DNA from: Candidatus Limnocylindrales bacterium
GTDB lineage: Bacteria > Desulfobacterota > Binatia > UBA1149 > CAITLU01
Assembly (NCBI GenBank): GCA_035571835.1
Contig: DATNBU010000039.1
Coordinates: 310,001 to 374,000, forward strand
DNA length: 64,000 nucleotides
Direction of reading: 5' to 3'
The translations under genes and the position numbers were made by a program. Shown here one piece after another: positions 36,423 to 42,717 of this stretch; positions within the stretch are counted from its first letter, which is position 1, and the number at the start of each line of letters is the position of its first letter. The notes below the pieces were generated by a model. That model made no database searches. It was not told where the DNA came from and saw only the letters and a list, made by a program, of their open reading frames with translations.

Positions 36423-39460
<3,038 letters not shown>

Positions 39461-39486
39461 CTCGGTTGCTCGCGTATCTATCGTCC

Positions 39487-40224
39487 ATGCCGACGAACGT
39501 ACCGAGTCCACGCGAGATCAGCATGCTTCTCCGGCAATCGCTTCTGTTCCGGGGCCTTCAGGACGCCGAAGTCGCGCCACTCGTCGAAGCCGTAAAAATC
39601 CAGAAAGCCAAGGCCGATTCGATCATTCTGCGTCGCGGAGATCCCGGCGACACGATGCTGATCGTCGTTTCAGGCCGTGTGAAGATTATCGCCACGTCGA
39701 TGCGCGACACCGAGCTCCTGCTGACCATCGTCGAGCGGGGCCAGATTTTCGGCGAGCTTTCGGTTCTCGACGGCCGCGAGCGATCGGCCGACGCAGTGGC
39801 ACTGACAAATGTTACGCTCCTGTGCCTCGACCGGAAGTCGGTACTCGACTTTCTGACCGTCCGCACCGACGTGCTGTTCCGCGTGCTGTCGGTCGTCTGT
39901 GCAAAGCTGCGGGCCACGACCGATATGGCCGAGCGCTCGGCGTTCCTTTCCCCGCCCGCCCGGCTTTTCCGTTGTCTGCTCGATTTCGCCAAGGTGAACG
40001 GCGAAACCAGCGGCGAAGGTCTGCGGGTACTGCACCGCCTGCCCCAGCGCGAGCTTGCCTCCAGCATCACGTCGTCGCGGGAAACCGTGAACAAGATTCT
40101 CCAGCACTGGAAAAAGCTCGATCTGGTCGAAACCGGCAGCGGCTACGTCTGGATCAAGAACGTCGCCCAGCTGGCTTCGGAAGTCGGCCTCGCCGGATAC
40201 GCCGACAGCCTCGGCAACCCGTAA
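39487..40224 (+). CDS. Crp/Fnr family transcriptional regulator
   Basis: A 245-residue regulator with an N-terminal cNMP-binding-type beta barrel (~20-140; RRGDPGDTMLIVVSGRVKI, GQIFGELSVLDGRERSADAVAL), a dimerisation helix and a C-terminal Crp winged helix (LPQRELASSITSSRETVNKILQHW). It contains no Fnr-type cysteine cluster, so a small molecule rather than oxygen is likely the signal. It begins 26 bases after dnaE2, so it may be co-transcribed and link the mutasome to a second signal. It ends three bases from the convergent aminotransferase gene. Confidence 0.9.
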   Translation: MPTNVPSPREISMLLRQSLLFRGLQDAEVAPLVEAVKIQKAKADSIILRRGDPGDTMLIVVSGRVKIIATSMRDTELLLTIVERGQIFGELSVLDGRERSADAVALTNVTLLCLDRKSVLDFLTVRTDVLFRVLSVVCAKLRATTDMAERSAFLSPPARLFRCLLDFAKVNGETSGEGLRVLHRLPQRELASSITSSRETVNKILQHWKKLDLVETGSGYVWIKNVAQLASEVGLAGYADSLGNP

Positions 40225-40227
40225 CGA

Positions 40228-41847
40228 CTAGGCGGCATGCCGCTGCCGATAGCGCTCGAGGAACCTGGCGAGGCGTCCGATCGCTTCGGTCAGGTCCTCA
40301 GGGTTCGGCAGGAAAACGATCCGCAGGTGATCGGGATGCGGCCAGTTGAAGCCGGTCCCCTGCACGACGAGGACCTTCTCTTCTTTGAGAAACTCGAGCA
40401 CGAACTCTTCGTCGTCGGCGATCGGATAAATCGTCGGATCGAGCCGCGGGAACAGGTACATCGCGGCCTGCGGCTTGACGCACGAAACTCCCGGAATCGC
40501 CGTCAGCAGCTCCCATGCAAGATCGCGCTGGCGCGTGAGCCGGCCCGCGGGAGCGACGAGGTCGTCGATGCTCTGGTGGCCTCCGAGCGCCGTCTGGATC
40601 GCGTGCTGCCCCGGCACATTCGCGCATAGACGCATCGACGCCAGCATGTCGAGCCCTTCGATGTAATCCTTCGCGTGCGACTTCTCTCCGGTCACGATGC
40701 ACCAGCCCGAGCGATAGCCGCACGCCCGCCAATTCTTCGACAGCCCGCCGAATGTAAGGCACAGCACGTCGCCAGACAGTGTCGAGATCGCGGTGTGCTT
40801 CCTGCCGTCAAACAGGACCTTGTCGTAGATCTCGTCCGCGTAAATGATCAGGTCGTTGTCGCGCGCGATCTTCACGATTCCGCGCAGCACGTCGTCCGGA
40901 TACAGCACGCCGGTCGGATTGTTCGGATTGATCACGACGATCGCGCGCGTCGAAGGCGTGATCTTCGACCGGATGTCGTCGAGATCCGGGATCCAGCCCT
41001 TGTCTTCGTCGCACAGATAGTGACGCGCGACGCCGCCCGACAGGCTCACGGCCGCGGTCCACAGCGGATAGTCCGGCGCGGGAATCAGCACTTCGTCGCC
41101 GTTGTTGAGCAGCGCGTTCATCGTCATCACGATCAGCTCGGAGACGCCGTTGCCGATGTAGATGTCTTCCATCGTCACGCCGCGCACGCCCTTGAGCTGC
41201 GTGTAGTGCATGATGGCCTTGCGCGCCGAGAACAGTCCCTTCGAGTCGCAGTATCCGGACGCGTCGCGCAGGTTGTGAATGACGTCCTGGACGATCTCTT
41301 CCGGTGCGACCAGGCCGAACGCGGCCGGATTGCCGATGTTCAGCTTGATGATGTTCTGCCCGTCCTCTTCCATCTGCTTGGCGCGCGCGAGCACGGGACC
41401 GCGAATGTCGTAACAGACACCGGCAAGCTTCGCGGACTTCAGAATCGGTTGCATCGCAGTTCGCTCATGGGAAAGGACACTGGCTCGGGCATTTCGGACA
41501 TTTGGATCATGGGAAAAGACTTCCTTTGCAGCCGCCGTAGCTGCAGCCGCCGTAGCTGCGGACGCGGTAGCAGCAGCCGCCGCAGTAGCTTCGGACGCCG
41601 GCGCTGGCCCGCTACCCTTCGCCGCCACGCCGGCCGCGCCCTCGGCGCCGATGGTGCCCGCAAGCCGTTCCAGCGCGCTTGCCGGGACGCGCAGCGTCCG
41701 CCGGCCGACTCGTACCGTCGGCAGCTCGCCGCGATCGGAAAGCCGGTAGATCGATTTCAGGTGCAGTCCGGTCCGGGCCGCCACCTGCTTCATCGTCAGC
41801 AGCGTTTCGCCGTCCCCGGTCCGTTCGTCCTGCGCTTTCGTGGCCAC
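40228..41847 (-). CDS. alaA: Excisionase-type HTH fused to AlaA-like alanine aminotransferase
   Basis: One uninterrupted frame encodes two modules. Residues ~15-65 are an HTH_17/excisionase-like DNA-binding domain (LLTMKQVAARTGLHLKSIYR, then RGELPTVRVGRRTLRVPASA). An Ala-rich linker of ~65 residues follows. From ~133 on the protein is AlaA-like throughout (SAKLAGVCYDIRGPVLARAK, KLNIGNPAAFGL, GNGVSELIVMTMNALL, VVINPNNPTGVLYP, with the PLP lysine in GGLSKNWRACGYR). It makes alanine from pyruvate and glutamate. No Shine-Dalgarno precedes the internal ATG where AlaA would normally start. The exact start is uncertain (GTG 41847 or ATG 41793). Confidence 0.85.
   Translation of the reverse strand: MATKAQDERTGDGETLLTMKQVAARTGLHLKSIYRLSDRGELPTVRVGRRTLRVPASALERLAGTIGAEGAAGVAAKGSGPAPASEATAAAAATASAATAAAATAAAKEVFSHDPNVRNARASVLSHERTAMQPILKSAKLAGVCYDIRGPVLARAKQMEEDGQNIIKLNIGNPAAFGLVAPEEIVQDVIHNLRDASGYCDSKGLFSARKAIMHYTQLKGVRGVTMEDIYIGNGVSELIVMTMNALLNNGDEVLIPAPDYPLWTAAVSLSGGVARHYLCDEDKGWIPDLDDIRSKITPSTRAIVVINPNNPTGVLYPDDVLRGIVKIARDNDLIIYADEIYDKVLFDGRKHTAISTLSGDVLCLTFGGLSKNWRACGYRSGWCIVTGEKSHAKDYIEGLDMLASMRLCANVPGQHAIQTALGGHQSIDDLVAPAGRLTRQRDLAWELLTAIPGVSCVKPQAAMYLFPRLDPTIYPIADDEEFVLEFLKEEKVLVVQGTGFNWPHPDHLRIVFLPNPEDLTEAIGRLARFLERYRQRHAA
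41528..41557. repeat. Perfect 15-bp tandem duplication in the HTH-AlaA linker
   Basis: GCAGCCGCCGTAGCT occurs twice without change (41528-41542 and 41543-41557). Fifteen bases keep the frame and add five residues (Ala-Thr rich) to the linker, so the linker length can probably vary between strains without breaking the fusion. Confidence 0.85.
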
Positions 41848-41952
41848 GAAGATGGGATAGCCGTTTCCGGCCCGAGAAGAAAGTAGAAAAATGATGAAAG
41901 TTCGTGAAACGGACCGGCCCAACCGCCCGGCTGGCACGCAAAAAGGAGACAG

Positions 41953-42717
41953 ATGATGAAAATCGAAGGGAAAGCGGCGATCGTAACCGGCGGAGGCACC
42001 GGCGTCGGCCGCGCAACAGCCCTCGAGCTGGCCCGCTCCGGGTGCTCGGTCCTCGTCAACTACTCGAAGTCAAAGGACGACGCAGAGCAGACGGCCGCCG
42101 ACGCCTGCGCCCTCGGCGCCAAGGCGATTGCCGTCCAGGCCGACGTCGCCGACGACGACGGTTGCCGGCGCCTCGCCGACACCGCCGTCCGCGAGTTCGG
42201 CCGGCTCGACATCCTCATCGCTAATGCCGGCACGACCGAGTTCATCCCGCACCACGAGCTCGACCTGCTGACCCCGGAGATCTGGCAGCGCATCTTCGGT
42301 GTGAACCTGATCGGGCCGTTCCAGTGCGCGCGCGCGGTGCGTGCGGCGATGGAAACGTCGGGCGGAGGCGCGATCGTCATGACGTCGAGCATCGCGGGCA
42401 CCAACGGCATCGGCTCGTCGATCCCGTACTGTGCATCCAAGGCCGCGCTGAACAACCTGACGCTCACGCTCGCTCGCGCGCTCGCGCCGAACATCCGCGT
42501 CAACGCCGTTGCACCGGGCTTCATCCGCGGCCGCTGGCTGAAGGCCGGTTACGGCGACAACTACGAGATGCTCGAGCAACTCGCGTCGGCACGCTCGGTC
42601 CTGAAGAAAGTCTGCGAGCCCGAAGACGTCACCGATGTGATCCTCGGATTCCTCAAGGCCGACCTCGTCACCGGCCAGGTTGCGATCGTCGACGGCGGGC
42701 TCACGATCGCGCAGTAG
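41953..42717 (+). CDS. SDR-family oxidoreductase (FabG-like)
   Basis: A 254-residue classical SDR. TGGGTGVG (~13-20), DILIANAGTT, the catalytic Ser in TSSIAGT, Tyr-x3-Lys in YCASKAALNN, PGFIRG and the terminal DGGLTIAQ are present. The pattern is close to FabG-like 3-oxoacyl reductases, and acyl-CoA synthetases are nearby, but the substrate is not known. AAGGAG precedes the ATG. Divergent from the HTH-AlaA gene, sharing a short AT-rich promoter region (about 41875-41915). Confidence 0.9.
   Translation: MMKIEGKAAIVTGGGTGVGRATALELARSGCSVLVNYSKSKDDAEQTAADACALGAKAIAVQADVADDDGCRRLADTAVREFGRLDILIANAGTTEFIPHHELDLLTPEIWQRIFGVNLIGPFQCARAVRAAMETSGGGAIVMTSSIAGTNGIGSSIPYCASKAALNNLTLTLARALAPNIRVNAVAPGFIRGRWLKAGYGDNYEMLEQLASARSVLKKVCEPEDVTDVILGFLKADLVTGQVAIVDGGLTIAQ

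What the first reader, a model, noticed from the sequence alone, without database searches (positions are those of the whole stretch)
40228..41847. Excisionase-type HTH fused in frame to an AlaA-like alanine aminotransferase
A HTH_17/excisionase-like DNA-binding domain (LLTMKQVAARTGLHLKSIYR) is followed in the same frame by a long Ala-rich linker and a full AlaA-like aminotransferase with intact PLP lysine. Fusion of a DNA-binding domain to an aminotransferase is known for MocR/PdxR (GntR-type), but those use a degenerate aminotransferase as sensor. Here the HTH is of a different class and the enzyme part looks active. It could sense alanine or pyruvate and regulate genes, for example the divergent SDR. 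No Shine-Dalgarno precedes the internal ATG, and no stop separates the modules.
Basis: partly seen in the sequence, partly recalled or inferred. Interest (0 to 1): 0.75.

Follow-up and report, generated by a model that had tools for sequence, protein, structure and literature searches.

The report
DNA-binding domain fused to alanine aminotransferase
In two species of one bacterial genus, the gene for an apparently working alanine-making enzyme (AlaA) carries an added excisionase-type DNA-binding domain in the same reading frame, so the enzyme may also act as a switch on its own gene; everywhere else we looked, AlaA lacks this domain.

Summary
One open frame (40228-41847, minus strand, 539 aa from GTG) encodes an HTH_17/excisionase-type winged helix, a disordered linker and a full AlaA-type alanine aminotransferase. 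The only other species of the genus held here (G001) has the same in-frame fusion: HTH 78% and enzyme 87% identical, linker of different length and sequence, no stop. The HTH is under purifying selection (dN 0.13, dS 0.69). The enzyme keeps every AlaA catalytic residue checked (64% identical to E. coli AlaA, 4CVQ). About 90 non-fused AlaA relatives, including three in the same family, lack the HTH. The fusion plus a Crp-like gene sits inside an ancestral SDR/dnaE2 junction, so it arose with the genus. A 15-bp element occurs once in each genome, 28 nt before the GTG in both; it is a candidate operator or promoter. Most likely this is an active enzyme-regulator of local or autogenous scope, working in principle like BirA or PutA. 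It is not a MocR protein: the DNA-binding fold is Xis/BldC-type, not GntR. DNA binding, target and effector are untested inferences. I file it as a new variant of a known kind, narrow in distribution.

The parts
40228..41847 (-). Fusion gene: GTG start at 41847, TAG stop at 40228; 539 aa
   Evidence: Open frame. The GTG aligns with the only plausible start in sister G001, where an in-frame TGA lies just upstream.
41656..41808 (-). HTH_17 winged-helix DNA-binding domain (about residues 14-64, ETLLTMKQVAARTGLHLKSIYRLSDRGELPTVRVGRRTLRVPASALERLAG)
   Evidence: PF12728 and TIGR01764 above cut-off. The model has a winged-HTH topology and is closest to phage Pukovnik Xis 4J2N and BldC 6AMA/6AMK. dN/dS about 0.19 against G001.
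41455..41658 (-). Linker of 68 residues, low confidence in the model; contains an Ala-rich ~15-nt repeat array (41527-41603) and a 22-nt direct repeat with 42-nt spacing (41457-41520)
   Evidence: pLDDT < 50 over residues 67-116 and 118-127; repeats; 33 unrelated residues in G001.
40231..41454 (-). AlaA-type alanine aminotransferase domain (408 aa; fusion residue = AlaA residue + 131)
   Evidence: 4CVQ E. coli AlaA: phmmer 4.6e-182, and structural match 64% identity, rmsd 1.0. All catalytic residues examined retained, including PLP Lys240 = fusion K371.
41876..41890 (-). 15-bp conserved element TTTTCTACTTTCTTC (imperfect heptad direct repeat TTTCTAC/TTTCTTC); candidate operator or promoter of the fusion gene
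   Evidence: Identical in G001; one copy in each genome at up to 1 mismatch. 28 nt before the GTG in both genomes (positions).
41953..42717 (+). Divergent SDR-family oxidoreductase: neighbour and possible, unproven, target
   Evidence: 77% identical and also divergent in G001. Present in the other genera of the family without a neighbouring HTH.

Best explanation
This is a genuine two-domain protein in which an excisionase/BldC-type winged helix was added to the N-terminus of an active AlaA alanine aminotransferase in the ancestor of one genus. Because AlaA is a homodimer, each molecule would carry two tethered DNA-binding domains. It most likely binds AT-rich DNA next to its own start (candidate: the 15-bp element at 41876-41890) and regulates its own transcription, with the level of active or substrate-loaded enzyme as the signal. 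The HTH is tethered to AlaA's N-terminal arm, the segment that in E. coli AlaA forms part of the dimer interface and is fully ordered over the active site when a substrate mimic is bound; this offers a plausible route for coupling. Shown here: the fusion, its conservation, selection on the HTH, intact catalytic residues, predicted folds, a conserved single-copy element at fixed spacing, and recent origin. Inferred: translation from the GTG, DNA binding, autoregulation, and sensing of alanine, pyruvate, glutamate or cofactor state.
For: The same in-frame fusion is in both genomes of the genus, although the linker has diverged to 68 versus 33 residues, a difference that keeps frame. The HTH has 12.3 nonsynonymous changes in 100 sites versus 19.7 synonymous in 44 (Fisher P = 2e-5). 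The model shows two folded domains joined by a disordered linker. The HTH is nearest to Xis and BldC, both DNA-binding. The 15-mer occurs once per genome, with the same 28-nt spacing to the GTG in both genomes; under neutral per-site identity of 0.5-0.6 a run of 15 in 100 bp has P about 0.001-0.016. The role of the N-terminal arm in AlaA is from PMC4094517. Enzyme residues are intact.
Against: Only two genomes of one genus carry it. No direct evidence exists for expression, DNA binding or effector response. The 15-mer could be a promoter or a pyrimidine-rich 5'UTR element rather than an operator; no canonical sigma-70 site was found. The long disordered linker may decouple the domains allosterically. 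The GTG has no Shine-Dalgarno in the window, and an AlaA-only product from the internal ATG is not excluded. The HTH model rests on six sequences (pLDDT 74).
Confidence: 0.5

Rival explanations
1. The fusion protein is made, but the HTH only tethers or positions a housekeeping AlaA on DNA, or is a conserved structural add-on, with no metabolite-responsive gene regulation.
For: The enzyme is fully intact, the linker is long, disordered and poorly conserved, and no regulon is seen: the candidate site is unique in the genome.
Against: The HTH is held by selection almost as strongly as the enzyme, and a single-copy conserved element lies just upstream of its own start.
Confidence: 0.2
2. Two products: a regulator-enzyme fusion from the GTG and a stand-alone AlaA from the internal ATG at 41454, so bulk metabolism is done by the short form and regulation by the minority long form.
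For: An ATG sits exactly at the AlaA N-terminus in both genomes. The last 24 codons of the window linker have low GC3 (0.42 versus 0.84 in the enzyme), as if a former 5' leader.
Against: No Shine-Dalgarno before the internal ATG in either genome. The methionine belongs to the conserved enzyme N-terminus, so its retention is expected anyway.
Confidence: 0.2
3. The HTH and the enzyme merely lie in one open frame by chance in GC-rich DNA or by assembly error, and are expressed as separate proteins.
For: GC-rich DNA gives long spurious frames (many).
Against: Two separately held, diverged genomes share it with no stop after the HTH; the linker length differs by 35 codons, a multiple of three; HTH_17 is above curated cut-offs in both. 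Without a stop, a separate HTH protein cannot end before the enzyme.
Confidence: 0.05
4. The HTH controls mainly the divergent SDR gene, with AlaA as the sensor.
For: The SDR is divergent and adjacent in both genomes.
Against: The SDR exists in the other genera of the family without any such HTH next to it. The conserved element keeps its spacing to the fusion start rather than to the SDR start.
Confidence: 0.15

Closest known systems
E. coli AlaA glutamate-pyruvate aminotransferase (PDB 4CVQ; PMC4094517)
   Same: 64% identity over the enzyme domain with all catalytic and plug residues checked (Y15, I17, R18, Y68, Y129, N179, D207, Y210, S239, K240, R248, R378) retained
   Different: AlaA has no N-terminal DNA-binding domain. 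The fused enzymes share A183V and Y242W at positions invariant in 88 non-fused relatives, and N236G at a position with N in 86 of 88.
MocR/GabR/PdxR regulators
   Same: N-terminal HTH plus fold-type-I aminotransferase domain with PLP lysine; architecture from PMC4944035 and PMC5320631
   Different: HTH is HTH_17 (Xis/BldC type), not GntR. The enzyme is an AlaA ortholog with an intact active site, whereas in GabR Tyr281 is believed to block transamination-like catalysis (PMC6917764).
BldC and HTH_17 excisionases (phage Pukovnik Xis 4J2N, RdfS)
   Same: Same winged-helix fold and family; best structural and sequence matches. BldC binds direct repeats head to tail (PMC5859096).
   Different: Those are small single-domain proteins; here the domain is tethered to a dimeric enzyme.
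Enzyme-regulators with a DNA-binding domain on an active enzyme (BirA, PutA)
   Same: [quoted passage not shown] PutA from general knowledge)
   Different: Unrelated enzyme and unrelated DNA-binding fold; regulation not shown here.

Membership tests
AlaA alanine aminotransferase | High identity to AlaA over the full enzyme, with PLP lysine and substrate/PLP-binding residues | tested here: met
   4CVQ 64% identity, rmsd 1.0; all checked residues retained
AlaA alanine aminotransferase | Alanine:2-oxoglutarate transaminase activity | not testable with these tools
   Needs enzyme assay
HTH_17 / excisionase-family DNA-binding domain | Score above curated cut-off of PF12728 / TIGR01764 | tested here: met
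   PF12728: 37.9 bits in the window fusion, 33.6 in G001 (cut-off 27); TIGR01764: 34.5 in the window (cut-off 28.8)
HTH_17 / excisionase-family DNA-binding domain | Winged-HTH fold like Xis/BldC | tested here: met
   AlphaFold model: best hits 4J2N and 6AMA/6AMK, rmsd 1.0-1.4, Foldseek E about 0.004-0.01 with probability 1.00
MocR (GntR-type HTH + aminotransferase-like sensor) | GntR-family wHTH (PF00392) | tested here: not met
   The only HTH families found are HTH_17 and weak related MerR/AbiEi_4 hits; no GntR hit at E <= 1
MocR (GntR-type HTH + aminotransferase-like sensor) | Aminotransferase-like domain binding PLP | tested here: inconclusive
   Residues for PLP binding are present, but by sequence the domain is an AlaA ortholog; PLP binding not measured
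Enzyme-regulator ('trigger enzyme') class | Same polypeptide has enzyme activity and regulates transcription | not testable with these tools
   Architecture and a conserved cis element are consistent; activity not measured

The most novel reading that the evidence does not exclude
An active alanine aminotransferase that reads its own substrate or cofactor state through the N-terminal arm and transmits it to a tethered excisionase-type winged helix, giving a PLP-enzyme regulator that arose independently of MocR without losing catalysis.
Probability: 0.3. Interest if true: 0.72.

Novelty: new variant of a known kind. Interest (0 to 1): 0.5.

Why it matters
MocR regulators are thought to descend from aminotransferases, but the step at which an active enzyme gained a DNA-binding domain is not preserved there. 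Here a young fusion (one genus) of a full-strength AlaA with an unrelated DNA-binding domain is caught early, with non-fused relatives in the same family for comparison. If it regulates, it would be an independent case of the same evolutionary step and a simple system in which to test how an enzyme becomes a regulator. I found no paper describing an HTH_17-aminotransferase fusion in the held library, which is not proof that none exists.

Tried and rejected
Chance open frame or assembly artefact: rejected because G001 has the same fusion. MocR membership: rejected on the HTH class. Degenerate enzyme: rejected, all catalytic residues checked are intact. Split-gene ancestor (separate HTH gene upstream of alaA or divergent from the SDR in related genera): searched around alaA and SDR in the family and not found. 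Fusion elsewhere: HTH query against 148 genomes of the class and 395 of the phylum gave no other frame long enough to hold both domains, and alaA orthologs in class, phylum and about 80 Betaproteobacteria and other Pseudomonadota carry no HTH upstream. Shine-Dalgarno analysis was uninformative for choosing the start. The sigma-70 promoter scan found nothing. Placing short HTH fragments in the full alignment failed (A1), so they were left out of the model alignment.

Full report
The observation. The minus-strand frame 40228-41937 is open for 569 codons. From the GTG at 41847 it reads 539 residues: a short N-terminus, an HTH_17 domain, a 68-residue linker, and a 408-residue aminotransferase. HTH_17 and the NCBI 'excise' model score above their curated cut-offs, and Aminotran_1_2 is strong. 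The Ala-rich linker is an array of about 15-nt repeats followed by a 14-codon imperfect duplication.

It is a real fusion. The only other genome of the genus held (G001) has the same architecture in one frame with no stop: HTH 78% and enzyme 87% identical, but a 33-residue linker of unrelated sequence. HTH dN 0.134 and dS 0.688, enzyme dN 0.088 and dS 0.702, linker dN 0.75 and dS 1.14 (the linker alignment is uncertain). The excess of synonymous over nonsynonymous change in the HTH is significant (Fisher P = 2e-5). A linker that changes freely yet keeps frame, between two constrained domains, is what a translated fusion predicts.

Start codon. The GTG aligns in the two genomes and in G001 is preceded by an in-frame TGA a few codons upstream. 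Neither the GTG in the window nor the internal ATG (41454) has a convincing Shine-Dalgarno; several non-fused alaA genes also lack one.

The enzyme. It is an AlaA ortholog: 64% identical to E. coli AlaA 4CVQ with 1.0 A rmsd. Tyr15, Ile17, Arg18, Tyr68, Tyr129, Asn179, Asp207, Tyr210, Ser239, Lys240, Arg248 and Arg378 are all present (roles from PMC4094517). The two fused enzymes share Y242W and A183V, at positions where all 88 non-fused relatives have Tyr and Ala, and N236G where 86 of 88 have Asn. These may mark altered kinetics; that is inference.

The DNA-binding domain. The model is a winged helix (pLDDT 74), closest to mycobacteriophage Pukovnik Xis and Streptomyces BldC by fold and by profile. 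BldC binds 9-bp direct repeats head to tail (PMC5859096), and RdfS, another HTH_17 protein, forms filaments (PMC11963761). In the full-length model the two domains fold and the linker does not.

Distribution and origin. AlaA orthologs are patchy in the class (14 of 143 genomes) and fall among Pseudomonadota sequences in a tree with weak deep support, suggesting horizontal spread. None of the other orthologs has an upstream HTH: about 80 genome-contig loci, the rest of the family and class, and five further phylum members. In G002, another genus of the family, the SDR lies about 0.4 kb from dnaE2 with nothing of this kind between; in this genus the fusion and a Crp-like gene sit between them. 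The arrangement therefore arose with the genus.

Cis element. Between the SDR and the fusion, the two genomes share the 15-mer TTTTCTACTTTCTTC, an imperfect repeat of TTTCTAC/TTTCTTC. It occurs once in each whole genome at up to one mismatch, exactly 28 nt before the GTG in both (positions), whereas its distance to the SDR start differs. A run of 15 identical bases in 100 at neutral identity 0.5-0.6 has P about 0.001-0.016. It is a candidate operator, promoter or 5'UTR element of the fusion gene itself.

How it most likely works. AlaA is a homodimer whose N-terminal arm contributes to the dimer interface; the arm was fully ordered over the active site in a crystal with a bound substrate mimic (PMC4094517). 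Here an HTH is attached to that arm through a flexible linker, so each dimer offers two DNA-binding heads. The simplest reading is an active enzyme that binds near its own promoter and adjusts its own synthesis, possibly according to substrate state. The tether, the intact active-site residues, the selected HTH and the conserved element are shown; DNA binding, autoregulation and ligand coupling are inferred. The flexible linker is the main argument against tight allosteric coupling.

Comparison with known systems. It resembles MocR in overall plan but fails the defining GntR HTH and, unlike GabR, where a tyrosine is believed to block further transamination (PMC6917764), shows no sign of enzyme degeneration. 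It works, if the reading is right, like BirA or PutA: an active enzyme carrying its own DNA-binding domain. The literature searches found no described HTH_17-aminotransferase fusion.

Verdict. A genuine, young, selected fusion of an excisionase/BldC-type winged helix with an apparently active AlaA; new variant of a known kind. Interest is moderate because distribution is narrow and the regulatory role is untested.

Noticed in passing
41457-41520 (window, minus strand): 22-nt direct repeat with 42-nt spacing (82% identical) at the 3' end of the linker, giving VFSHDPN / VLSHERT; low GC3 there suggests a recent duplication or former leader DNA.
   Followed up: partly
39403-40224 (window) and L115: A Crp/Fnr-type regulator convergent with the fusion gene is part of the same genus-specific insertion between SDR and dnaE2; best matches in other genera of the family are only 36-47% identical and lie elsewhere.
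   Followed up: partly
fusion residues 314, 367 and 373 (AlaA 183, 236 and 242): Three substitutions shared by the two fused enzymes at positions otherwise invariant or nearly so, two of them within four residues of the PLP lysine.
   Followed up: no
L058 upstream of 4001; probably also L035, L053, L090: In L058 a second aminotransferase (AlaC-like by eye) is read directly upstream of alaA; double-length matches in L035, L053 and L090 hint at a similar tandem arrangement.
   Followed up: no
G000:C8:169466-169693 (L114): A second, weaker match to the HTH and linker (37% identity, interrupted by a TAA) elsewhere in the same genome; possibly a related or decayed HTH gene.
   Followed up: no
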